A stretch of DNA of 64,000 nucleotides, taken from assembly GCF_002214185.1 (NCBI RefSeq), contig NZ_CP022161.1:7323486-7387485 (forward strand), in the 5' to 3' direction. This stretch comes from Streptomyces capitiformicae (GTDB lineage: Bacteria; Actinomycetota; Actinomycetes; Streptomycetales; Streptomycetaceae). The notes below the pieces were generated by a model. That model had not been told where the DNA came from. It saw only the letters and a program-made list of their open reading frames with translations, and did not search any database. Made by a program: the position numbers and the translations under genes. How positions within the stretch are numbered: the stretch's first letter is position 1; the number at the start of each line of letters is the position of its first letter. Below are positions 52,092-64,000 of this stretch, piece after piece.

Positions 52092-54770
52092 GTGGGCGAC
52101 AGTGTGGAGCGGTACGTTCGGTGGACCGTCGGCATGCTGGAGGCGCTGGAGCGGTCCGAGCCGGGCGGCCTCGGCGGCGAGGGCGGCGAGGGCGATGGGG
52201 GCGATGGGAGCGGTGGGAGAGATCGGGGCGATGATCTCGAACTGCCGCGGAAGCGGGCCGAGTTCAGGGTCGCCGTCGCCCGGCTGCTCGGGGAGGCGCG
52301 GGGGCCGCTCTCGGTGGGGGTGGTCGGGGAGTTCAGCGCGGGCAAGTCACTGCTGATCGAGACGCTGCTGGGGCTGCCCGGTCTGCTGTCGGTGAGCGAT
52401 GTGGCGACCACCGGGAACGTCACCTCCCTCCACGTCACCCAACTGCCCGGCGACGAGGCATCCTCGGTGCTCGACGGGCGCGCCGTCGTCTACTGCACGG
52501 CCGCCGAGACGAGCGAACTCATGGCCCATCTCCACAGCAGGCTGGTCGAGTTGGCGCGACTCGAGGAAGGGCTGGGTGACCAGTGGCTGGGCGAGTTGCG
52601 CGCCGCCACCCCGGGGCCGGGCGCCGGCGGCTGGGAGGCGCTCGCCGCCTGGTGCCGGAAGCACGGCGCAGGTGTCAGCGGGACCAAGATGCGGTCCGTC
52701 GCCGAGGAAGTCGGGCTGGTGCAGGCGGCGTACGAGCGCGGGGCGCCACTGCTCGGCCGCCGGTACGAGCTGTCGGACGCGCAGGCCAAGCGGGCCATGT
52801 CCCTGCCGGGCGTGCGGTTGGGGGAGAAGGGCGGCGGCCGGGCCGGGCCGGATACGGGGGCGGACTCCGAGGCGTACGGGCAGGCCGTCGGCGGGCCCGG
52901 GCAGCGGATACCCGACGATGTGCTCGCCGCCTGTGTGCCGCTGATCCGGCGGGTCGAGCTGAGGGTGCGGGTGCCGCGCCGGGTCTGGGACCTGCGCGAC
53001 ATCGGAGCGCTCACCCTGCTGGACTTCCCCGGGCTCAACAGCCCGCAGTCCGGGGAACGGGACCGGTTCCTCAGCCGCCGGGAGCTGCGGGACATCCACA
53101 CCGTCCTCGTCCTGATGAACGCGCAGCGCGGGCCCGTCTCCAGTGAGCAGGACTTCTTCGACATGCTGCGCGAACCCACCGCCGACGGGCGGGAACGCCG
53201 ATCGGACGAGGTGCTCAGGGAGAGCCTGCTCGTCGCGGGCGGTCGCTTCGACCAGATGCCCGTGGAACCCGAGGTGCTCAGCGAACTGCTGGGCAGCGCC
53301 CCCGAGCCGCTCACCGAGCGGCGGCTGCGCGGGCTGCCCGGCACGGCCGTACTGGACGAGGTCGTCGAGGCCGCCCAGCGGCTGCTGCCGCCCGGGCAGC
53401 GCAAACAGCTCGTACTGGTGTCGGCCATGGCCGGACTGGCCGCGCTGCACCGCTCGGGCGCCGTGGAACTCGACGAGTCGACGCGGGCCCGGCTGCGGCC
53501 CGGCACCGAGGCCGACCGGCTGACGCGGATCACCGAGCTCTGGGGCAAGATCGCCGACCGGCTGGCGGAGGACCAGCCGGGGGCACCGCTCAGCAGGGTG
53601 CTGCGGGAGTTCGCCAAGGACGGCGGGCTCGGCCTGCTGCGCGAGCAGTTGGTGCGGCATGCCGCGGAGCACGGCGGCGCCATCCGGCGGGACGCCGTAC
53701 GGCGCCGGGCCGGGGCGGTGGACCGGATGCGGCTGGCCCTCATCGCAGCCGAGCGGGCCGCGCACCCGGAGGCCGAGTACCCGCCCGCCTTCCGGGAGAT
53801 GCGGCAGGCCCTGGACGACACCCGGCGGCTGCTCACCGACCTCCGCGACACCCTGGTCCTCGGGCTGGGACCGGGCACCGTCCAGGCCGACGACGCCCTG
53901 CGACGGCGCGTCGCCGACGAGGCCGCGACCCTGGTCGCGGGCTGGCCGGAGTGGAAGGAGCTGTTCGCGGCGGTCGACCGGGACAAGCAGCTCGTCACGG
54001 TGGGGCAGGGCTGGAGCGACGAGGACCGGGCGTTCACCGACAGCGTGTGGGCGGCCGCGGCGGAGATCGGGCTCGACCTCGACATGGGCGCCGGGCCCGA
54101 CGTACCCGCCGACGGGCCGCCCCCCGGCGTCTCGGGCGACCCCGAGGAACTGGTGCCGAGGTTCCGCGCCGGACACGCCGCCCTGCTCAAGCTCGTCCAC
54201 GACCGGGTCCGGGTCGGCTACGAGGAGCGGCTCGCGGACCACGTCGACACCATGGACGAACTCCGCGACCGCTGGCGGCAGTTGATCGCCGCCGAGCGGG
54301 AACGCGGCCCCATGACCCCGACCCGTACCCAGCGGATGCTCGAACTGTTCGCCACCACCCGGGCTGAGGAGTGGCGCGACCGGTTGCGCAGGGCCGACTC
54401 CCCGCAGACCGACCCCGCCGCCGTGGACGCCGCGTTCCCGCTCCGCCGGGACCGCTGTCTGCCCTGGCACTCCGAGCAGCCCCCGGGCCGCGACCCGCTG
54501 GAGCGGCACGTCGTGCACGCCGTGCGGATGCGGCGCGAACTGGTCACCGCCCTGCTCCAGCTGGTCCACGGCCAGTTGGCGAAGGAGCAGCTCGCCCTCG
54601 CCGCGACGGCCGAGTCCGTCATCGCCGCCCGGGAACGCACCGTCACCGCGCACGACACCCTCGACCTGCTTCTCTCCGACAGCGCGGCGAAGGAGGGGGA
54701 CCACGCGGGCGCTCCGCTCGACCTGGCCGCGCGGCTGGAGGCCACGCCCCCGCCCACGAGGACCCGCTGA
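52092..54770 (+). CDS. Dynamin-like large GTPase (SrfC-like)
   Basis: An 892-aa protein. The P-loop is GEFSAGKS (residues 79-86), followed by TTGNVTS as probable switch I and DFPG (residues 311-314) as G3. A canonical N/TKxD G4 is not seen. About 200 residues lie between switch I and G3, far more than in classical dynamins. The rest is long alpha-helix (AEHGGAIRRDAVRRRAGAVDRMRLALIAAERA and similar), as in dynamin stalks. Residues 23-50 are Gly/Glu/Asp low complexity. GTG 52092 is chosen for its spacing from GGGGGAGG (52075-52082). It is first of five co-directional genes; an Hsp70-like gene follows, as in srfC/srfB pairs. Confidence 0.75.
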   Translation: MGDSVERYVRWTVGMLEALERSEPGGLGGEGGEGDGGDGSGGRDRGDDLELPRKRAEFRVAVARLLGEARGPLSVGVVGEFSAGKSLLIETLLGLPGLLSVSDVATTGNVTSLHVTQLPGDEASSVLDGRAVVYCTAAETSELMAHLHSRLVELARLEEGLGDQWLGELRAATPGPGAGGWEALAAWCRKHGAGVSGTKMRSVAEEVGLVQAAYERGAPLLGRRYELSDAQAKRAMSLPGVRLGEKGGGRAGPDTGADSEAYGQAVGGPGQRIPDDVLAACVPLIRRVELRVRVPRRVWDLRDIGALTLLDFPGLNSPQSGERDRFLSRRELRDIHTVLVLMNAQRGPVSSEQDFFDMLREPTADGRERRSDEVLRESLLVAGGRFDQMPVEPEVLSELLGSAPEPLTERRLRGLPGTAVLDEVVEAAQRLLPPGQRKQLVLVSAMAGLAALHRSGAVELDESTRARLRPGTEADRLTRITELWGKIADRLAEDQPGAPLSRVLREFAKDGGLGLLREQLVRHAAEHGGAIRRDAVRRRAGAVDRMRLALIAAERAAHPEAEYPPAFREMRQALDDTRRLLTDLRDTLVLGLGPGTVQADDALRRRVADEAATLVAGWPEWKELFAAVDRDKQLVTVGQGWSDEDRAFTDSVWAAAAEIGLDLDMGAGPDVPADGPPPGVSGDPEELVPRFRAGHAALLKLVHDRVRVGYEERLADHVDTMDELRDRWRQLIAAERERGPMTPTRTQRMLELFATTRAEEWRDRLRRADSPQTDPAAVDAAFPLRRDRCLPWHSEQPPGRDPLERHVVHAVRMRRELVTALLQLVHGQLAKEQLALAATAESVIAARERTVTAHDTLDLLLSDSAAKEGDHAGAPLDLAARLEATPPPTRTR

Positions 54771-54806
54771 CCTCTTCCGCCACCCGTCACCGATTTGGGA
54801 GAACCC

Positions 54807-57800
54807 ATGGGACTGCACGCCCACTTCGTCTCCTCGGGCGCGTCCTGCGTCGCCGACTCCTACGGGAACGGGTTCACCCTGCTCGGACCGCTGTCCGCGC
54901 TGGAGCTGCCCGCCCTGCGGCTGCTGCCGACACCGGGCGGCGACGTCCTCGTCCGGGGCGTCGAGGTGATCGCCCCGCCCGGTCTGCCCGCGGGCCAGCT
55001 GGCCGCCCTGCGCGAGCTGTGGCGGGGAGTGGAGGGGCGTGTCATCACCGAGCCCACCGTGGTGGCCGCCTCCGGCCCCGCCGCCCTGACCCGGCTGCCG
55101 GGCGACACCGATCTGGCCCTGCTGCTGATCGTCCACCACCACGGGACCGACACGGCCGCAGGACAGGTGATGAGTACGACCGAGGTCACCACGACCCTCC
55201 ATCTGGACCGGGCGAGCGCGCCGGTCCCGGGGCCGCCGGGACCGGCGGCGGGGAATGGGGCCTGGTACGACCCGAACCAGTGGACGCCGGCGCGGCCTAC
55301 CGCTGTGACGCAGACGGCCGCGACGCAGACCGCGGGGACGCACGCCGGCGCCCAGGTGAGCGGGGACGGCACCCCGTTCCAGCGGGTCCCCGACGACGTG
55401 CAGCGCCACCGCGGCTTCGCCGCCATCGACTTCGGCACCACCAACTCCACCGTGACCATCCACGACATGCGCCAGCTCGACGTACGCGCCATGTCACGCC
55501 ACCAGGAGGCGCGGCTGCGCCGGGAACTCGTGGCCCTGCTCTCCGAGCCGTCCGTGCCGGGGGCCGAGCGCGGACAGTGGCGCGAACTGCTCGGCGACGT
55601 GGCCCGACAGCTCCTCCCCGAGCGGGGCGGGGACCACGGCGAGCCCGGGCGGGCGCTGGCCGACGCGCTGGAGGGCGGGTACGGCGGTGACGGCTGGCTG
55701 CACGCGCTGTACACCGCGCTCGAACTGCGCCTCGCAGCCAGGAGCGACCGGCTGCGCGGCGCCGTGGCCCCGCTGCTGCACGCCTGCTTCGACCGGGCCT
55801 TCGACGAGCTGCCGCTGGATGTGCTGCGGCTGTTCCCCGCCGACCTCGACCAGTCCGGCGGCACCGAACTGGCCAGCCGGGTCGAGGTGGTCGAGACCCG
55901 GCCCGACTTGCGCGTACGGATGGGCGAGGAACGCGTCGCCGTCGGGGGCACCCCGGACGACGCGCCCCGCGCCTACCGTGGCCTGAAGCAGTACCTGGGC
56001 CGTGACCTGCCGATACCCGAGCTGCCGGCCCGCGCCGACGGCAGCCCGACCACCGCCGACGACCTCATCCGGGAGGGACTGCGCCATCTCCTGGACCAGG
56101 GCGACGAGTTCATCACCACCAACCCCAAGGAGTTCCACCAGGGCCGTATCGACCACCTCGTCATGACGTACCCGACGATCGCACCGCCCGCCGTACGCCG
56201 ACGGCTGCGCCAGCTGGTCGGCGCGGGCGGCGACGGTGTGGACGGGCTCGGTGTCACGCTCGTGGACACGCAGTTCGACGAGGCCGTGGCGGCGGCCCTG
56301 TTCTTCATCATGCGGGACTTCGGCGGGGACTTCGCGGCGGGCGTCGAGGCGTTCCGGGCCCGCTGTCGCCCACTGCCCGGCAGCGGCCGGGCCTGGCAGC
56401 AGAACGTCATGGTCCTCGACATCGGCGGCGGCACCAGCGACCTCGCCCTGATCAACCTCAAACTCAAGGACAACACCCCCGACCCCGTGCCCGGCCAGGA
56501 CCCCCGGTTCACCGGACGGCTGTACGTCCTCACCCCCAAGCTGCTCGGCTCCACCGGCCATCTGCAGCTCGGCGGCGATCTGATGACGCTGCGTCTGTTC
56601 CGCTGGTACAAGGCCGCGTTCGCCGACCACCTCCTCACCCGGTGGCCCGACCGCCACGAACGGGTCGTCGCCACGCTCAAGGTCCCCTACGCCACCGGCG
56701 ACGGGGCGTACGTCCCCGGCAGCCTGCTCGCCCGGGACACCGAGACCGACGGCTATCCGGGCGACCTGGTCGACCTCGTCGTACCCACCCGCTGGGACGA
56801 TCTGCCGCCGACGCGGGCGCGGGAGGTCGAGCAGACGTTCTGGCTGCTGTGGCGGCTCGCCGAGGAGGCGAAGATCCAGCTGGGCGCGGGCGTCGCCGAG
56901 CACCGGCCGCCGCCCGAGGCGTTGGAGGCGCTGCTGACCCGGTTGAGGGGAGTCGAAGGGTGGAAAAGCGCGGCCGGCGAGGAGTGGGCGCCGTGTCTGG
57001 ACGCCGACCGGTTCGAGCGGCTGATGGCCCCGGTACTCGACGAGATCATGGACCTGGTCGTGGCCCTCGCCGAGAACGGGCTGCAGGGCGGTGAGCTCGA
57101 CCGGATCTTCCTCAGCGGCAAGAGCAGCCGGATGCCGCTGATCCGCCGGGCGTTGGAGCGCCGGCTGTGCCGGGAGGCCGGGGTGCGCTGGAACTCCGCG
57201 GGCATCGCCGTCGAGGAGCAGTACGGGAAGCTGGCCACCTCCATCGGGGCCTGCTGGGGCCACCACGTACGCCGGTTCGCGCACGACGAGGGCAATGCGC
57301 AGGGTGTCCTCGGCCGCGGCCGCTACGTGCTGCGCATCGAGGTCGACAACCTCCGCTACTACCTGCCCTGCGACTTCGGCGCCACCTTCCAGCTGGGCTC
57401 GGCCGCCGCCCCCACCTACGCGCTGCTGAAAGTGGGCGACCAGCTCAGCCCCATCGGCCCAGGCGGCACCTGGGCGATCCGCAGCAGGTGGGAGAAGCAG
57501 CCCAAGAGCCTGCGCGTCCACCGGGGCACCGGCACCGGGTGGGTCGAGTGGGGCGCGTTCGACCCCGACGATTGGATCAGCCGCCGGGAACCGGACTTCG
57601 GCCTGGACCTGGAGGAGTGGGCGAAGCAGGTCCTCTTCCAGGTCGAGGTCGACGCGGACCTCTCCCTCCACCTCCATCTCGTACGCGGCGAACCGCAGTA
57701 CGAGGTGCGCGGCCGGGCCCAGGCCCGGGTCGACCTCGACTCCGGGGCCGGGCCGGACGGGCGGTGGACGCCTCTGGAGATCGTCGTGGACTCCAGGGTC

Positions 57801-58352
57801 GCCGGGGACCGGCCGGACAAGGGGGCGGTGGTGTTCAGCATGGCCGAGGATCCGCGGGTGCGGAGCGAGCAGGAGGCCGTGGAAGCCGGGGAGGCTCGAC
57901 AGGGCGCCGCGGCCGGTGGGTGGTTCGACCGGCTGTTCCGGGAGGACGGGCCGGCCGGGGTGCGACTGGTGCGGGGGCGGATGAGTGAGCCGTTGCCTCC
58001 GCCCCCGCACGACGGGTGGTCCTTCTATGTACGCCGCCCGACACAGCCGGACCGGGCGCTGGAGCTGGTGGACGTCGTCCCCGTGCCCCGCCGCGACGAC
58101 GCGGACCGGCAGGACCCGGCCGTCCGCGGGGAGCGCCGGGACGAGGGCGGCGAGCAGCACGAGGGGACCGAGTACGTGGCGACGCTGGACGAGCACGGCC
58201 GACTGCGGGTGCACCGTACGCCGGTGCCGTACTGGGCGGCGGACACCGTCGCCGAGATGTGGCACAACGAGGGAGCGGTGTTCCGGGTCGGCATGAACGA
58301 CGCGGCGGCCGCGCACATCGCCGAGCGCGACCCCTTCAACGGCAGGCACTGA
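54807..58352 (+). CDS. Hsp70/actin-fold ATPase, SrfB-like, with large insertions
   Basis: An 1181-aa protein. The ASKHA nucleotide pocket is clear: phosphate-1 AAIDFGTTNSTVTI (Asp about 208), phosphate-2 VMVLDIGGGTSDLALI (Asp about 538) and the adenosine motif LSGKSSRMPLIRRAL near 768. Phosphate-1 to phosphate-2 spans about 330 residues against roughly 190 in DnaK, so subdomain IB has a large insertion. An extra 200-residue N-terminal region and a 400-residue C-terminal region replace the DnaK substrate domain. ATG 54807 has GGGAGA 5 nt upstream. It is 36 bp after the GTPase gene. Confidence 0.78.
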   Translation: MGLHAHFVSSGASCVADSYGNGFTLLGPLSALELPALRLLPTPGGDVLVRGVEVIAPPGLPAGQLAALRELWRGVEGRVITEPTVVAASGPAALTRLPGDTDLALLLIVHHHGTDTAAGQVMSTTEVTTTLHLDRASAPVPGPPGPAAGNGAWYDPNQWTPARPTAVTQTAATQTAGTHAGAQVSGDGTPFQRVPDDVQRHRGFAAIDFGTTNSTVTIHDMRQLDVRAMSRHQEARLRRELVALLSEPSVPGAERGQWRELLGDVARQLLPERGGDHGEPGRALADALEGGYGGDGWLHALYTALELRLAARSDRLRGAVAPLLHACFDRAFDELPLDVLRLFPADLDQSGGTELASRVEVVETRPDLRVRMGEERVAVGGTPDDAPRAYRGLKQYLGRDLPIPELPARADGSPTTADDLIREGLRHLLDQGDEFITTNPKEFHQGRIDHLVMTYPTIAPPAVRRRLRQLVGAGGDGVDGLGVTLVDTQFDEAVAAALFFIMRDFGGDFAAGVEAFRARCRPLPGSGRAWQQNVMVLDIGGGTSDLALINLKLKDNTPDPVPGQDPRFTGRLYVLTPKLLGSTGHLQLGGDLMTLRLFRWYKAAFADHLLTRWPDRHERVVATLKVPYATGDGAYVPGSLLARDTETDGYPGDLVDLVVPTRWDDLPPTRAREVEQTFWLLWRLAEEAKIQLGAGVAEHRPPPEALEALLTRLRGVEGWKSAAGEEWAPCLDADRFERLMAPVLDEIMDLVVALAENGLQGGELDRIFLSGKSSRMPLIRRALERRLCREAGVRWNSAGIAVEEQYGKLATSIGACWGHHVRRFAHDEGNAQGVLGRGRYVLRIEVDNLRYYLPCDFGATFQLGSAAAPTYALLKVGDQLSPIGPGGTWAIRSRWEKQPKSLRVHRGTGTGWVEWGAFDPDDWISRREPDFGLDLEEWAKQVLFQVEVDADLSLHLHLVRGEPQYEVRGRAQARVDLDSGAGPDGRWTPLEIVVDSRVAGDRPDKGAVVFSMAEDPRVRSEQEAVEAGEARQGAAAGGWFDRLFREDGPAGVRLVRGRMSEPLPPPPHDGWSFYVRRPTQPDRALELVDVVPVPRRDDADRQDPAVRGERRDEGGEQHEGTEYVATLDEHGRLRVHRTPVPYWAADTVAEMWHNEGAVFRVGMNDAAAAHIAERDPFNGRH

Positions 58353-58357
58353 CCGCC

Positions 58358-59671
58358 GTGGACGCCCTCAGGACGCTTCTGGGCCGCGCCCCCGGTTCCT
58401 GGCTCGCCGTCATGACCCGCGCCCAGCTCACCGGATTGTGCGCCGCCCTGCGCGAACTCCTCGGCACCCGCCCCGAGGACCCGGGGGCGGAGGAGTGCCG
58501 GGCCGTGCTGGCCGAACTGGAGGCGCTGCTCGCGGTGCCGGGCGGGCCGGTGTCGGCCGAGGCGCCGCCTGCGGGGGCCGGGCCGGTGGTGCCCCTTCCG
58601 GTGCCGGACCGGCCCCATACCGCCCCTGGGATGCCTGTGCTGGGGACGCCCTCTGCCGGAGTGCCCGTTCCCGGGCCGCCCGCCTCCGGAACGGCCCCGC
58701 CCGCTCCCCCCGCCGGTCTCCTCTCCCGTACCACTCAATCGGCGGCCTGGGTGCACGGGAACGCCCCCGCCGTCGATCCCGAACTCTCTTCTCTCGCCGG
58801 GGAGTTGGTGAACAGCGCGGACGCCGTCGACTATCTCGGGCCGGTGCAGTTGCCCGCGGGGGCCGACACCCCGGCCCTGTGGCGCTGGTTCCACCTCACG
58901 CTGCTCCGGCTGCCCGCCGCGCAGGTGCCGAAGTGGCGGGAGCGGGCGGAGAGGCTGGCGGTGGCGGATCCGGTGGGCGCGCGGTGGATCGAGTGGCGGG
59001 CGCTCGACCGTGAGCAGGTGCTGATGCCGGGCCTGCCCCGGTACGGCATGGCGGGCGTACGGCTGGCCGTGCGGGGCGGCGTCGCGCCCTGGGTGCTGGA
59101 CGTGGCGGGAATCGAGGACGCCGTACCCGAGGGGGACGACCGGTCGCCCGTGCGGGCGTGGGCCGTACTCGCGGGCTGGGTCGCCGCGCTCGCCGAACTC
59201 GACGACCACGTGCACCACTGCGTGGAGAGCCTCACCCACCGGGGCACCCTGTCCCTCGCCGACCCCGTCCACCGACGCGCCTACCAGCAGGAACTCGCCC
59301 AGCGGCTCGGCCGGCTCGCCGCCCGCCGTTCCCAGGACTCCGCGGCGGAGCTCCAGGCCGCGCTGGCCGTCGACGAGGCACTGTGCTCGGTCGTCCACCT
59401 GCCCCCGGCGGCCCCCGGCAGCTGGTGGGCCGAGGTGGCGGAGACCTCCCAACGAGCCGTCCTCGAAGTACGCCGCCGGGCCCGCGCGGACGGCGCCGAC
59501 GTCGCCGTCGAGGTTCTGGCCCCTTCCTACCGCGAGGCCCGCCGCCGAACCGGCGGCAACGACATCCCCCTCGACGCGGGCGGCCGCAAGGGCCAGATCC
59601 TCGCCGGCCTCCGCCTGTGGGCCCGGATCGACGGGCGCGAGCTGCCGGGACGGGTGGTGTATCGGGGATGA
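58358..59671 (+). CDS. Unrecognised third component of the GTPase-Hsp70 operon
   Basis: A 437-aa protein starting at GTG 58358, 5 nt after the Hsp70-like stop. Residues 1-55 are helical (TRAQLTGLCAALRELLG), 60-120 is a Pro/Ala/Gly linker, and the rest is helical with Trp-rich patches (ALWRWFHLTLLRLP, RWIEWRALDREQVL). The C-terminus (VEVLAPSYREARRRTGGNDIP... RIDGRELPGRVVYRG) vaguely recalls the beta domain of GrpE, so a nucleotide-exchange or adaptor role is possible. SrfA-like is another guess. No family is recognised with confidence. Confidence 0.6.
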   Translation: MDALRTLLGRAPGSWLAVMTRAQLTGLCAALRELLGTRPEDPGAEECRAVLAELEALLAVPGGPVSAEAPPAGAGPVVPLPVPDRPHTAPGMPVLGTPSAGVPVPGPPASGTAPPAPPAGLLSRTTQSAAWVHGNAPAVDPELSSLAGELVNSADAVDYLGPVQLPAGADTPALWRWFHLTLLRLPAAQVPKWRERAERLAVADPVGARWIEWRALDREQVLMPGLPRYGMAGVRLAVRGGVAPWVLDVAGIEDAVPEGDDRSPVRAWAVLAGWVAALAELDDHVHHCVESLTHRGTLSLADPVHRRAYQQELAQRLGRLAARRSQDSAAELQAALAVDEALCSVVHLPPAAPGSWWAEVAETSQRAVLEVRRRARADGADVAVEVLAPSYREARRRTGGNDIPLDAGGRKGQILAGLRLWARIDGRELPGRVVYRG

Positions 59672-59766
59672 GGGGCCGGGGGGTGGCTGAGGGTCGACCC
59701 CGCCGGACCCGCCGGGGCGATGCCGACCCGGGGCGGGGTAGGCGGGAAGAGAAGGGAGGGGAACGC

Positions 59767-62700
59767 ATGAGCGGATACGAGGCCGCGGCTTTCGAGGGGG
59801 ACGACCGGAGTGGGCGAGGCGGCCAAAGCCGCAAGGGTGGTTCAGGAGGGCAGGGCAGCGAATTCGGCGGGGTGTTGACCGAACTGTTGCTGTTCGAGCG
59901 GCGGGGGGTCGATCCCGCCGCCCATCGGACCGACGGGCCGCGACACACCCGGCAGGGGGAGGCCGGCCTGGAGCGGTGTCTCGCCGTGGCGGCCGCGCTT
60001 GCTGCCGGGGAGCCCAAGCGGGCCTCGGTGTTGTCGAGCGGGTGGCCGCCGGACGAGGGCCACCCCGGGCGCGACGGCGTACAGCTAGTGCCCCGACAGG
60101 CAACGTTCGCCCCGTCGCGACGTCCGGCACGCTCCCCCACTCTCGGCTTCGATCGAGCGGGAGGGGCCCCCATGAGCGGGAGGGGCCCCACCGCCGCACC
60201 GGCCGAAAGCCCAAGTACATCCGGTCCATCTACGGGGCCTTCCGGCCGGCACACCGAGAGCACGCACCGGACGCCGCTCCTTGACGGGCAAACGTTGCCT
60301 GCCGGGGCACTAGCTCGGGCGTTGCGAGCCGCCGCTGTCGCCATGGACCACAACTGGCAGCCCGGCACCTCGACCGTGCCGCTGCGGGCCGAGGCGGTCG
60401 CGGCACTGCACGCCACCGGTGGAGGCACCGAGGCGGCCGTCGCCTCTGTCGGCGACCGGCGGCTCCGGCTCGCCGCGCATCTCGCCGGGCGGGTCTGGCC
60501 CGTACTCCTCTCCGCCCGGATGACGCTCGGCCACACCAGGGGCATGAGCGCCGCTCAGGAGGAGTCCGTCCGGTACGGGGCCGACGCGCCCTGGACCGGG
60601 TGGGACCTGTCGGAGGGGCTGCGGGAGCCGCTCAAGTGGTTCGACGAGTTGTATGAGTTGTACGAATTGTACGAGTTGTGCGACGTGTACGAGGACGCCC
60701 TCGCCCATCACCTGCTGCTGGCCGCCGATCTCCGCGTCCGGGCGGGCGACCGGGAGGCGGCCGAGCCCCTGGCCCGGCGGAGCGTGGCGTGCGCCTCGCG
60801 GACTCCGGCGTCGGTCGGAAGCGTCGCGTTGTTTGTCGGGGACTGGCGGCTGGGCGTCCCCGGTACGGCGGAGCAGTGCGCGGCGGTGTCGGATCCACCC
60901 GGCTCGCGCGCCCTGTCCAGGGCCGCCGCGCAGTACGAGCGTGCCGAAGCCGCGTACCGGCAGGCCGGTTCGGAGCGGGGCCGGGCGGCGGCGCTGCTGC
61001 GTCTCGCCCACACCCAACGGCTCGCGGGGCGGCGGGAGACCTGCCAGGAGACCCTTCACCGGGCCCTGGAGTCGGCGCTCGAGGCCGGCGACGGAGCGTG
61101 TGCCGCGCTCATCCGCGTACATCAGGAGGTCGACGCGATCGCCACCGGTGCGGAGACCGACGCGGAGGCCGTGGACGCCGTCGTGCACTGGGCACGGACG
61201 GACGGCAGTACCTCGTGGCTGCGGGGGTTACGACAACTCGCTGTGGAACGTGCCGAGTTCTGGAGCGCGCGGGGGGATGTAGTCAAGGCCAAGCGAGCGG
61301 TTTCGCTGGCCCAGCGGCTGGTCCACCGGCCGGCCGGGGAATCCGACGACACCGGGGGCATGGCGGTTGCGTCGGTGGCGGGCACGTTCCGGCGGGCGCG
61401 GCACCGGCTTGCCGGGATCGTGCTGACCGACATGGAGCAGCGGGAACACACGGACGCGATCCGGTCTCTCGTCGACCGGGGCGAGCCTCCGGAACTACAG
61501 AACTGTCTGGGCGTCATCGAGGCCGCCAAGACCTACCACGACCAGGCGTCGGCGCTGCGCGACCCCGATCTGATGGCCGCCTCGCGCGCCGCGATCGAGT
61601 TCGCGCTCGACATCGGGACGCGGTACCTGGCCGGCGGCGATCAGGTGGACACGGCCCTCGGCATGCTCTGGTCCGATCTCGCCGCCGGTCAGGCGCAGGA
61701 GACCTTGTTCCGCTCCCGTCGCGCCCGTGCGGCCGGGCTGGCTGAGGAGGCGGATCGCCTCGCCCGGCAGGTCCTGCGGGAGGCCGAGGACATCCCGGAC
61801 GAACTGTTCCGGCTCCTCGTGCGCTGCGCCGCCCACACGGACCTGCGGCAGCCGGCCGAGGCCGTCGCCGCGACGGCGGCGGCCGAGCCGAGGCTCCCGG
61901 CCATCGTCGCCGCCTCGCTGTGGCTGCGGTTGGGGGAGCCCGAGCGGGCCGCGCCGCATGTCCCGCGCATCGGTGTCGACGGCCCCGGACCGGACCAGCC
62001 GTGGGAGGTGCCCGCGATCCGGGCCGACCTCGCACTGGCCGGGCATGCCTACGACGAGGCCGCCGCGCATGCCCGGCAGGGGCTCGCCGCGTTCGAGGAG
62101 CACCGCCGCAGGCTCGCCCGTGACGCCCTGCGCGCCTCGTCGGCCGACGACTTGATCATCGCCGGGCTCCAGCACGCCGCCGTGCTCGCCCTGCTGTCGT
62201 CCGGCGGCCCCGACGCGGCAGCCGCCGCTTTCGACCAGGCCGAACGCGGCCGCGCCGGCTTCCTCGACGCCGTCCACGCCCTCGACACGGCCACCGCCGG
62301 GCCGCCGACCGCCCGCGCGGCGGTACGCGACTGGCTTGCCGCCGAGGTCCGCTGGTCGGCCGCGTTCGAGGAACGGGCGGCCGAGATCCGCCGCCGGGCG
62401 GACCCGGAACGTACGGACGCGCCGACGGTGACATGGGCGGCCGACCCGGAACAGGCACAGGCGCACATCGGCGAGGTGGAACAGGCCCTGGACGCCGCCG
62501 AGTCGGAGGTACGGCGGCTCGCTCCCGCATCGCTGAGCGCCTCGCCCACCGCCTTGCATACTTCCGTGCACGCCGCCTCCCACGACTCCGCACTGCCGAA
62601 CGCGGCGTCCGTGGCCGAGGCGCTGCCCGAGGACGCCCTTCTGCTCACCTATCACGTCTTCGACGACATCCTCGTCGGCTGGGCGATGACCCGTGAGGCG

Positions 62701-63828
62701 CTGGTTCACGAGCGGTTCACCCGGCGGCCGCACACCACGGTGGCGGCGGCCCGGCGCTTCCGCGACTGGTGCGCGCTGGCGGACGCCCACGGGGACGACC
62801 ACGGCGGTGCGGCGGCGGGGCGGGACCTGGCCGACGACCTGCTGCGGCCCTTCGCCGCAGCGCTGCGCGATCACCGGCGGGTGATCGTGGTGCCCCCGGC
62901 CGCGTTGGCCCTGCTGCCGTTCCACGCGCTGCCCTGGAACGGTGACGTCCTCGGCGCCGGCCACGACGTGTCGTACCTTCCCGCGGCCTCCCTCCTCACC
63001 CGGCGCCACCGGCAGCCGCCGGAGCGGCCCTGGACCGAGCTGGACGCCCTACTGGTCGGCGCTCCCGCGAGCGATCCCCGCCATGGCCTGCGGGAGCTGC
63101 CGGGCACCGCCGCCGAAGTCGTCGAAGCCGCCCGGTTGTTGCCCCGGGGGCGGGCGCTCACGGGGGCCACCGCCACCCGCGACGAGGTGCTGAGGGCGGC
63201 GCGCGGATGCGGCGTGCTGCATCTCGCCACCCACGGGCTGGTCGACGAACTCGCCCCGAACCGCAGCCGGTTGCCCCTCGCCGGGGACGACGTCCTCGGC
63301 CTCGCCGACCTCCTGGCCGTCGCCCACGACCCCCAACTGCTGGTGCTGTCCGGCTGCGACACCGGACGGGGCACCGCCACCGCCGGCGGAGATGTACTGG
63401 GCCTGACCCGAGCCGCCCTGATCACCGGCGCCCGGCACGCGGTCGTCTCGCTCTGGCCGGTCGGCGACGCCACCGGCTGCCTCGTCCTGGCCCACACCTA
63501 CCGGCATCTGACCGCGGAACCCTTGCCCACCGCGCCCGTCGTGTCCCTCGGCGCGGCGCTGGCCAGGGCGCAGCGCGAGGTACGCGACATGTCCGGCGCC
63601 GAGCGGTACGAGGAGTTCCGCGAGCTCACGCGGAGGGCCGAGGTCCATCCGGGCCCGGCCTCGCGTGCCCGCAGCCGGGCCGGAAATCCTTGGGACTCCA
63701 GGGACTCCAGGGACTCCAGGGACTTCAGGGACTCCAGGGACTTCAGGGACTCCGCACCGCTCCGTCGCCGCGAGGCAGACCACCGGCACCCGTACCACTG
63801 GGCGCCCTTCATCCACGTAGGGGTGTGA
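59767..63828 (+). CDS. Helical-repeat CHAT-domain cysteine protease
   Basis: A 1353-aa protein. After a low-complexity N-terminus come several hundred residues of TPR-like helices (AAQYERAEAAYRQAGSERGRAAALLRLA and similar). The CHAT caspase-like protease domain covers about residues 960-1290, with catalytic His in VLHLATHG (residue 1156) and Cys in LVLSGCDTG (residue 1197). ATG 59767 is chosen for its strong GGAGGG site; open frame further upstream overlaps the previous gene. Three oddities: an in-frame inverted-repeat element (60085-60313), 9-bp coding repeats, and a TTA leucine codon at 61228. CHAT proteases often execute programmed cell death in bacterial conflict systems, here presumably gated by the upstream NTPases. 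Confidence 0.82.
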   Translation: MSGYEAAAFEGDDRSGRGGQSRKGGSGGQGSEFGGVLTELLLFERRGVDPAAHRTDGPRHTRQGEAGLERCLAVAAALAAGEPKRASVLSSGWPPDEGHPGRDGVQLVPRQATFAPSRRPARSPTLGFDRAGGAPMSGRGPTAAPAESPSTSGPSTGPSGRHTESTHRTPLLDGQTLPAGALARALRAAAVAMDHNWQPGTSTVPLRAEAVAALHATGGGTEAAVASVGDRRLRLAAHLAGRVWPVLLSARMTLGHTRGMSAAQEESVRYGADAPWTGWDLSEGLREPLKWFDELYELYELYELCDVYEDALAHHLLLAADLRVRAGDREAAEPLARRSVACASRTPASVGSVALFVGDWRLGVPGTAEQCAAVSDPPGSRALSRAAAQYERAEAAYRQAGSERGRAAALLRLAHTQRLAGRRETCQETLHRALESALEAGDGACAALIRVHQEVDAIATGAETDAEAVDAVVHWARTDGSTSWLRGLRQLAVERAEFWSARGDVVKAKRAVSLAQRLVHRPAGESDDTGGMAVASVAGTFRRARHRLAGIVLTDMEQREHTDAIRSLVDRGEPPELQNCLGVIEAAKTYHDQASALRDPDLMAASRAAIEFALDIGTRYLAGGDQVDTALGMLWSDLAAGQAQETLFRSRRARAAGLAEEADRLARQVLREAEDIPDELFRLLVRCAAHTDLRQPAEAVAATAAAEPRLPAIVAASLWLRLGEPERAAPHVPRIGVDGPGPDQPWEVPAIRADLALAGHAYDEAAAHARQGLAAFEEHRRRLARDALRASSADDLIIAGLQHAAVLALLSSGGPDAAAAAFDQAERGRAGFLDAVHALDTATAGPPTARAAVRDWLAAEVRWSAAFEERAAEIRRRADPERTDAPTVTWAADPEQAQAHIGEVEQALDAAESEVRRLAPASLSASPTALHTSVHAASHDSALPNAASVAEALPEDALLLTYHVFDDILVGWAMTREALVHERFTRRPHTTVAAARRFRDWCALADAHGDDHGGAAAGRDLADDLLRPFAAALRDHRRVIVVPPAALALLPFHALPWNGDVLGAGHDVSYLPAASLLTRRHRQPPERPWTELDALLVGAPASDPRHGLRELPGTAAEVVEAARLLPRGRALTGATATRDEVLRAARGCGVLHLATHGLVDELAPNRSRLPLAGDDVLGLADLLAVAHDPQLLVLSGCDTGRGTATAGGDVLGLTRAALITGARHAVVSLWPVGDATGCLVLAHTYRHLTAEPLPTAPVVSLGAALARAQREVRDMSGAERYEEFRELTRRAEVHPGPASRARSRAGNPWDSRDSRDSRDFRDSRDFRDSAPLRRREADHRHPYHWAPFIHVGV
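60085..60313. mobile_element. MITE-like inverted-repeat element inserted in frame in the CHAT gene
   Basis: Terminal inverted repeats of about 33 bp (left AGTGCCCCGACAGGCAACGT from 60087; right its complement with two mismatches and one indel, ending 60311) are flanked by CTAG on each side (60085-60088, 60310-60313). Removing one TA- or CTAG-type target copy takes out 225 bp, exactly 75 codons, and joins GVQL to ARALRAAAVAMDHNW as one helix. It has no transposase gene and no stop in the host frame. Confidence 0.75.
60130..60174 (+). repeat. 45-bp dispersed repeat, copy C (inside the inserted element)
   Basis: CGCTCCCCCACTCTCGGCTT...CCCCCATG, related to copies A (7268) and B (46937). It is the only one of the three inside a coding sequence, and it lies within the inverted-repeat element. 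Confidence 0.65.
60646..60690 (+). repeat. Five 9-bp coding tandem units (ELY)n
   Basis: GAGTTGTAT, GAGTTGTAC, GAATTGTAC, GAGTTGTGC, GACGTGTAC encode ELYELYELYELCDVY. The codons are unusually AT-rich for this gene, pointing to recent slippage expansion. Confidence 0.75.
61228..61230 (+). other. TTA leucine codon (bldA-dependent translation)
   Basis: Codon 488 of the CHAT gene is TTA (context ...WLRGLRQ...). In Streptomyces TTA is read only by the bldA tRNA, which accumulates late in growth. I noticed no other in-frame TTA in the genes of the window, but the check was by eye. Confidence 0.8.
63692..63754 (+). repeat. Seven 9-bp coding tandem units near the C-terminus of the CHAT protein
   Basis: GGGACTCCA-type units (variants GGGACTTCA, last GGGACTCCG) encode DSRDSRDSRDFRDSRDFRDS. 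They lie after the protease domain in an Arg/Asp-rich linker, 72 bp before the stop codon. Confidence 0.85.
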
Positions 63829-63829
63829 G

Positions 63830-64000
63830 ATGACGCTGCGAGCGGTGCTGATCGGCGCCGAGACCTACGGCCTGACCGGCGTCCACACCGATGTCGAGCT
63901 GATGGGCGAACTGCTCACCGGACACGGCTTCACCGACATCCGGACCCATACGGGCGACCGGGCGGGCTACGCGCGCATCAAGGGAGCGTTGAGCGCACTC
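63830..64000 (+). CDS. Caspase-like (peptidase C14) protein, N-terminal part
   Basis: The first 57 codons are present: MTLRAVLIGAETYGL, then GVHTDVELMGELLTGHGFTD and RAGYARIKGALSAL. This is the opening of a caspase p20 domain (alLIG--Y-L-G---D---M--lL---GF--I and then an I--AL--L helix). The catalytic His and Cys would be beyond the window. ATG 63830 is one base after the CHAT stop, so the two are translationally coupled. Confidence 0.7.
   Translation, partial: MTLRAVLIGAETYGLTGVHTDVELMGELLTGHGFTDIRTHTGDRAGYARIKGALSAL

What the first reader, a model, noticed from the sequence alone, without database searches (positions are those of the whole stretch)
52092..64000. Five-gene GTPase / Hsp70-like / partner / CHAT protease / caspase-like locus: candidate undescribed conflict or cell-death system
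Seen: five co-directional genes with gaps of 36, 5, 95 and 1 bp. They encode a dynamin-like GTPase (GEFSAGKS, DFPG), an ASKHA ATPase (DFGTTNS, DIGGGTSD), an unrecognised 437-aa protein, a TPR-like protein with a CHAT His-Cys dyad, and a caspase-like N-terminus. Known: SrfB/SrfC pairs combine Hsp70-like and dynamin-like proteins, and CHAT and caspase-like proteases are effectors in bacterial immunity of multicellular bacteria. Inference: the two NTPases sense or remodel a membrane or protein state and license two death proteases. I know no described system with this exact set.
Basis: partly seen in the sequence, partly recalled or inferred. Interest (0 to 1): 0.9.

Follow-up and report, generated by a model that had tools for sequence, protein, structure and literature searches.

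The report
Dynamin–Hsp70 switch beside death proteases
A rare gene cluster in a soil bacterium puts a two-engine molecular switch (a dynamin-like and an Hsp70-like protein plus an unknown partner) next to two death-type proteases, and its relatives suggest an undescribed self-destruct or immunity system built from swappable modules.

Summary
In detail: five co-directional genes with gaps of 36, 5, 95 and 1 bp; the fifth runs past the window end and is a full 676-aa caspase-like protein. Pfam supports dynamin (gene 1), Hsp70-type ATPase (gene 2), CHAT (gene 4) and caspase (gene 5); gene 3 (G3) matches nothing. Both protease dyads are intact. The locus is two modules rather than one five-gene unit. 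T (GTPase, Hsp70-like, G3) keeps its order wherever examined, across three families. C (CHAT, caspase) is in relatives often followed by a Crp-like receptor and a cyclase-like protein; here those two are deleted, leaving a scar. T and C lie within about 10 kb of each other in five Streptomyces, in different orientations and with two different CHAT-caspase subfamilies on similar T cores; some distant T loci carry CHAT, Crp and cyclase-like genes. That suggests repeated functional pairing. Against it, in a draw of 100 other Streptomyces genomes T (2) and C (3) never co-occur. Best reading: an NTP-gated conflict or cell-death system, close in concept to published GTPase/Hsp70 and caspase conflict systems but failing their membership tests. 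No function was tested.

The parts
52092..54770 (+). Gene 1, dynamin-like GTPase, 892 aa (module T); P-loop GEFSAGKS at residue 79, DFPG at 311
   Evidence: Dynamin_N 34.9 bits, cut-off 27; 8 of 8 aligned relatives match Dynamin_N; motifs
54807..58352 (+). Gene 2, Hsp70-like ATPase, 1181 aa (module T); long C-terminal part unlike the DnaK substrate-binding domain
   Evidence: HSP70 24.8 bits, cut-off 20.6; profile matches the DnaK nucleotide-binding domain, best 4.6e-11, no listed match in the C-terminal third
58358..59671 (+). Gene 3 (G3), orphan 437-aa protein (module T)
   Evidence: No Pfam match for the window protein at E <= 1, no PDB match; conserved downstream of gene 2 by similarity in 11 of 13 loci
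59767..63828 (+). Gene 4, CHAT-domain protein, 1353 aa (module C); His1156/Cys1197
   Evidence: CHAT 1.5e-48; dyad kept in 8 of 8 relatives aligned, window included
63830..64000 (+). Gene 5, start of a caspase-like protein (module C); continues outside the window to 65860, 676 aa in all; His74/Cys126
   Evidence: Peptidase_C14 1.8e-17 on the full protein; dyad kept in 9 of 9 relatives aligned, window included

Best explanation
A two-module conflict or cell-death system. Module T (dynamin-like GTPase, Hsp70-like ATPase, orphan G3) is an NTP-driven switch that watches a membrane or protein-assembly state; G3 is its dedicated adaptor. Module C is the effector: when T changes state it frees the CHAT protease, which acts with, and probably cuts, the caspase-like protease to kill or arrest the hyphal compartment. 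In fuller versions a cyclase-like protein and a Crp-type receptor add a cyclic-nucleotide step that amplifies or transcribes the response; this genome has lost that arm. Shown: gene content, conserved order of T, intact catalytic residues, repeated T-C neighbourhood, deletion of the Crp and cyclase-like genes. Inferred: the signal, contact between T and C, the order of the two proteases, and death as outcome.
For: T order kept in 12 of 12 loci where the GTPase side was examined. Caspase at the T locus in 5 of 8 T-positive Streptomyces genomes, in line, convergent or upstream. CHAT/caspase subfamilies do not follow the T tree: G422's T is 79% window-like but its CHAT is 58% L008-like and 36% window-like. 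Distant T loci G216 and G403 carry CHAT, Crp and cyclase-like genes, G190 Crp and cyclase-like genes, G042 a Crp gene. Dyads intact in 9 of 9 caspases and 8 of 8 CHAT proteins. Other conflict genes beside T: TIR (G154), CATRA-TIR (G410), DO-GTPase (G042). T is rare and patchy: 2 of 100, 3 of 147, 0 of 167 other genomes.
Against: In the draw of 100 other Streptomyces genomes T (2) and C (3) do not overlap. G190's caspase is 0.68 Mb from T; six T-positive genomes besides the draft G425 and the incomplete G001 have no caspase match: G042, G216, G154, G403, G410, G402. CHAT genes were not counted genome-wide, so a CHAT gene near a distant T locus may be chance. Window and L006 share one chromosomal site and count once. 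The window genome has lost the Crp and cyclase-like genes, so its locus may be decaying. No experiment, and both structure models are poor.
Confidence: 0.5

Rival explanations
1. Two or three independent conflict systems sharing a defence island: T, C and a further dynamin/Hsp70 module (K) each work alone and merely accumulate at the same spots.
For: C occurs without T in 3 of 3 C-positive genomes of the 100-genome draw; T occurs without a caspase in G042 and others. K adjoins T in L007 and G190 and C in G079 and G085. Other conflict genes (TIR, DO-GTPase) lie near T too.
Against: The same kinds of module (C with T) recur in different orientations with different subfamilies; in the window and L006 they form one co-directional run with small gaps.
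Confidence: 0.32
2. A developmental or envelope-stress programme of filamentous actinobacteria (membrane remodelling plus regulated proteolysis), not a defence against invaders.
For: Dynamin-like proteins usually act on membranes (general knowledge); a DUF4407 membrane gene precedes T in 5 of 5 non-Streptomyces loci with upstream DNA.
Against: A developmental function should be widespread, but T is in 2 of 100 other Streptomyces genomes drawn and 0 of 167 of a phylum draw; neighbours include typical conflict genes.
Confidence: 0.15

Closest known systems
GTPase-centric conflict systems (DO-GTPase + GAP1, some with Hsp70/GrpE), Kaur et al. 2020, PMC7159879 (passages seen)
   Same: GTPase plus Hsp70 plus a dedicated third protein, in multicellular bacteria, with protease and cyclic-nucleotide parts elsewhere in the same network
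   Different: Gene 1 matches Dynamin_N, not the DO-GTPase models; 'dynamin' and 'CHAT' do not occur in that text
EACC1-caspase systems, Kaur et al. 2020, PMC7159879 (passages seen)
   Same: Caspase as second gene of a pair
   Different: Score 55.4 against the NCBIfam cut-off 140; the first gene is a 1353-aa CHAT protein, not a small one-helix membrane protein
SrfABC operon (PMC6950479, passages seen)
   Same: Three genes of similar size: published srfA/B/C 1395, 3021, 2682 bp, here G3 1314, Hsp70-like 3546, GTPase 2679 bp; weak SrfB match in 9 of 10 relatives
   Different: Window's SrfB score 17.9 bits is below the cut-off 27.1; no SrfC match in 8 of 8; no published link of SrfABC to CHAT or caspase genes was looked for
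Craspase TPR-CHAT protease Csx29 (search listings only)
   Same: CHAT protease with a long N-terminal region
   Different: 16.7 bits against a cut-off of 300; no CRISPR gene was recognised in the proteins annotated here
CATRA caspase-dependent conflict systems (named in PMC8195603, passage seen; original paper not held)
   Same: Caspase-linked; a CATRA-TIR gene lies upstream of T in G410
   Different: None of the window's five proteins matches a CATRA model at E <= 1

Membership tests
Dynamin-like GTPase (gene 1) | Dynamin-type G domain | tested here: met
   Dynamin_N over cut-off, 8 of 8 relatives match at E <= 0.1
Dynamin-like GTPase (gene 1) | Stalk/paddle fold and membrane action | tested here: inconclusive
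   Model mean pLDDT 46.9, unusable; no PDB sequence match
Hsp70/ASKHA ATPase (gene 2) | Hsp70 nucleotide-binding domain | tested here: met
   PF00012 over cut-off; DnaK NBD 4.6e-11
Hsp70/ASKHA ATPase (gene 2) | Substrate-binding domain of chaperone Hsp70s | tested here: not met
   No match of the C-terminal third to DnaK chains or Pfam
SrfABC | SrfB (PF07520) over cut-off | tested here: not met
   17.9 bits against 27.1; weak matches in 9 of 10 relatives, best 7.8e-6
SrfABC | SrfC (PF10139, accession from the finding) match in the GTPase | tested here: not met
   0 of 8 at E <= 0.1; that the model is in the library was not checked
DO-GTPase/GAP1 system | GTPase matches DO-GTPase1/2 (PF19975, PF19993) | tested here: not met
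   No match for gene 1 or 8 relatives; the same models do match a neighbour gene in G042
DO-GTPase/GAP1 system | Third component is GAP1 | tested here: inconclusive
   G3 has no credible Pfam match, but presence of GAP1 models in the library was not checked
EACC1-caspase system | Caspase of the EACC1-associated type and an EACC1 membrane partner | tested here: not met
   55.4 bits against 140; partner gene is CHAT; no clear transmembrane segment
Caspase (C14) and CHAT proteases | Family match over cut-off and His-Cys dyad | tested here: met
   dyads in 9 of 9 and 8 of 8
Craspase Csx29 | Csx29 model over cut-off | tested here: not met
   16.7 bits against 300
Antiphage defence system | Described system models match | tested here: inconclusive
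   PADLOC gives short partial matches for genes 1, 2, 4 (LeoA 20.2, PDC-M61B 13.2, BovA 23.8 bits), a generic caspase match of 40.7 bits for gene 5, none for G3
Antiphage defence system | Protects against phage | not testable with these tools
   Needs an experiment

The most novel reading that the evidence does not exclude
A prokaryotic counterpart of an apoptosome-like switch: a Srf-like dynamin/Hsp70/adaptor core gates a CHAT-to-caspase protease cascade with an optional cyclic-nucleotide relay (cyclase-like protein and Crp-type receptor). Cores and effector pairs are exchanged as modules between loci, and a second module (two dynamins, C39 peptidase, Hsp70) joins the same cluster.
Probability: 0.3. 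Interest if true: 0.85.

Novelty: new variant of a known kind. Interest (0 to 1): 0.64.

Why it matters
If the coupling is real, it adds a dynamin plus Hsp70-like switch with an unrecognised third protein to the few candidate triggers of bacterial caspases and CHAT proteases, whose activation is mostly unknown. It would offer a tractable actinobacterial model of a two-protease cascade, and it would give the dynamin/Hsp70 pairing seen in Srf-type operons a testable role.

Tried and rejected
Single five-gene unit: rejected because CHAT-caspase occurs without T and T without a caspase.

SrfABC, DO-GTPase, EACC1 and Craspase membership: each failed at least one tested feature.

Carriage on plasmids or phages: no relative of the Hsp70-like protein in 72,556 plasmid records (E <= 1e-20) or 50,697 phage records (E <= 1e-10); the other four proteins were not searched there.

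Structures of G3 and the GTPase: mean pLDDT 45.6 and 46.9 from 4 and 5 sequences; no fold search was run because such models give meaningless matches.

Cyclase-like domain: no Pfam or NCBIfam match; one weak match to an adenylate/guanylate cyclase structure (3mr7, 5.5e-4). Metal-binding-like Asp residues are kept; the usual catalytic Asn is not evident (motifs recalled), so activity is uncertain.

First motif check missed some dyads because I had trimmed the proteins; one search repeated it on whole ORFs.

Literature: ten searches of the held library and passages of PMC7159879, PMC8195603 and PMC6950479 showed no description of this gene set. The library lacks most subscription papers, among them the paper that I recall as the CATRA description (not held).

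Full report
What is there. The window is bases 7323486-7387485 of a single 10,989,391-base chromosome, of the genus Streptomyces by inference (its closest named relatives, 80% identical in gene 2 and syntenic, are Streptomyces). Five co-directional genes lie at 52092-54770, 54807-58352, 58358-59671, 59767-63828 and 63830-65860, the last crossing the window end. Gene 1 is a dynamin-like GTPase, gene 2 an Hsp70-type ATPase with long unmatched flanks, gene 3 (G3) an orphan, gene 4 a CHAT protein, gene 5 a caspase-like protein. None has a clear transmembrane segment by a simple hydropathy scan (one marginal window in CHAT).

Module T. A scan of genome contigs with the Hsp70-like protein gave five loci (L006-L010). 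Genome searches gave two of 100 other Streptomyces genomes, three of 147 other genomes of a class draw, none of 167 others of a phylum draw, and four of the 34 other genomes of G216's family, one of them (G154) already found. With the window that is 14 T-positive genomes. In two the GTPase side was not examined (L009: 3.3-kb contig; G402: the gene is split over two contigs and the other contig was not fetched); in the other 12 of 12 a GTPase lies directly upstream. G3 is recognisable by similarity in 11 of the 13 loci with downstream DNA; in G154 and G410 an ORF of suitable size stands in its place. Identity of the Hsp70-like protein falls to 26-32% between families, so the order is old. In 5 of 5 non-Streptomyces loci with upstream DNA a DUF4407 membrane gene precedes T (Pfam for four; tblastn for G403); none was seen in the Streptomyces loci by tblastn.

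Module C. CHAT and caspase genes are neighbours in 8 of 8 Streptomyces loci examined: same strand in 7, divergent in G422. In the window genome these two genes are gone: DNA just after the caspase gene matches 36 bp near the start of the L006 Crp gene (94%), three bases later 48 bp near the end of L006 CAP (85%), and then, after a short tandem repeat, the convergent neighbour gene. So an ancestor probably had CHAT-caspase-Crp-CAP.

Are T and C one system? For: the caspase profile matched 6 of the 14 T-positive genomes. In five, all Streptomyces (window, G421/L006, G423/L008, G424/L010, G422/L007), it is at the T locus; in G190 it is about 0.68 Mb away. Arrangements differ: in line (window, L006), convergent (L008 about 1.5 kb, L010 about 7 kb away), and about 10 kb upstream with another module between (G422). 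CHAT and caspase fall into two subfamilies that do not follow the T tree: G422's T core is window-like (79%) but its CHAT is L008-like (58% against 36%). In the distant relatives G216 and G403, T is flanked by CHAT, Crp and cyclase-like genes, and by an ORF that by eye resembles the N-terminal part of CAP; G190 has Crp and cyclase-like genes, G042 a Crp gene, G402 a CHAT gene about 9 kb away.

Against. In the one draw not seeded by the window, 100 other Streptomyces genomes, T (2) and C (3) do not overlap; these searches scored only 7 and 12 candidates per genome and may miss divergent copies. CHAT genes were not counted genome-wide, so CHAT near a distant T locus could be chance. A comparison of C in T-positive Streptomyces other than the window (4 of 7) with T-negative ones (3 of 98) gives p = 2.4e-4, but five of the seven came from a scan seeded with window peptides and are related, so I give it little weight. 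The window and L006 share one chromosomal site (murC-msrB side, gene names recalled) and count once.

A third module, K. Two dynamin-like genes, a C39-peptidase-like gene and an Hsp70 lie beside T in L007 and, convergent, after CAP in G421. Two dynamin-like genes and the start of the Hsp70 lie beyond the Crp and cyclase-like genes in G190. The first dynamin, the C39 gene and part of the second dynamin, with kinase-like and PP2C genes, lie beside C in G079 and G085. In the 100-genome draw the first K dynamin is in 3 genomes, 2 of which are these C-positive ones (Fisher p = 0.0018; the two are 79-81% identical in C, and may be one event). In the window genome, beyond base 64000, the K Hsp70 survives (Pfam 4.2e-41), and the end of an ADP-ribosylglycohydrolase ORF resembles the tail of the second K dynamin; a first dynamin and C39 gene with open frames sit at 1.53 Mb.

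Mechanism. Shown: gene content, conserved T order, intact catalytic residues (9 of 9 caspases, 8 of 8 CHAT proteins), recurrent neighbourhood with protease and second-messenger genes. Inferred: T is an NTP-gated switch with G3 as adaptor; CHAT and caspase are its effectors; the cyclase-like protein and Crp receptor form an optional relay. CHAT before caspase is a guess by analogy with CHAT proteases that cut a partner.

Known systems. The nearest concept is the set of GTPase/Hsp70 and caspase conflict systems of Kaur et al. 2020 (PMC7159879, passages), but the DO-GTPase and EACC1 tests fail and 'dynamin' does not occur in that text. SrfABC (PMC6950479, passages) is similar in gene sizes and, weakly, in SrfB, but not in SrfC. 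A CATRA-TIR gene upstream of T in G410 ties T to published caspase-linked conflict components; PMC8195603 only names the CATRA systems and the paper I recall as their source is not held. That is the main prior-art risk.

Verdict. A real, rare combination that I did not find described in the searches named; most likely a new variant of the NTP-gated conflict systems of multicellular bacteria.

Noticed in passing
L004:15346-15680 (window numbering about 65860-66194, outside the window): Scar after the caspase gene: short matches to the start of the L006 Crp gene and the end of its CAP gene, then a 15-bp tandem repeat; about 2 kb present in L006 is missing here.
   Followed up: yes
L004:16147-18524 (-); L007:1-7256 (-); L052; L017:15983-19998: A further module K (two dynamin-like genes, C39-peptidase-like gene, Hsp70) beside T or C; in the window genome only the Hsp70 and a dynamin-tail-like end of an ADP-ribosylglycohydrolase ORF remain at the locus.
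   Followed up: partly
G000:C1:1533047-1534732 (L058): A K-type dynamin and C39 gene with open frames far from the T/C locus in the window's own genome, without the other K genes nearby.
   Followed up: partly
L023:2750-5308: A DO-GTPase gene and an Hsp70 gene near T in G042: a published conflict-system component beside the new core.
   Followed up: no
L040:515-2551: CATRA-N, CATRA-C and CAP12/Pycsar TIR domains in one protein upstream of DUF4407 and T in G410.
   Followed up: no
G000:C1:491886 and 5830532 (L001, L003): Two other caspase-domain genes in the window's genome, in open frames of 1718 and 1815 residues.
   Followed up: no
L010:21134-23727 (-): The caspase here has a longer C-terminus and is followed by a gene with a weak vWA match (below cut-off); a beta-lactamase-family and a protein-kinase gene lie between it and T.
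   Followed up: no
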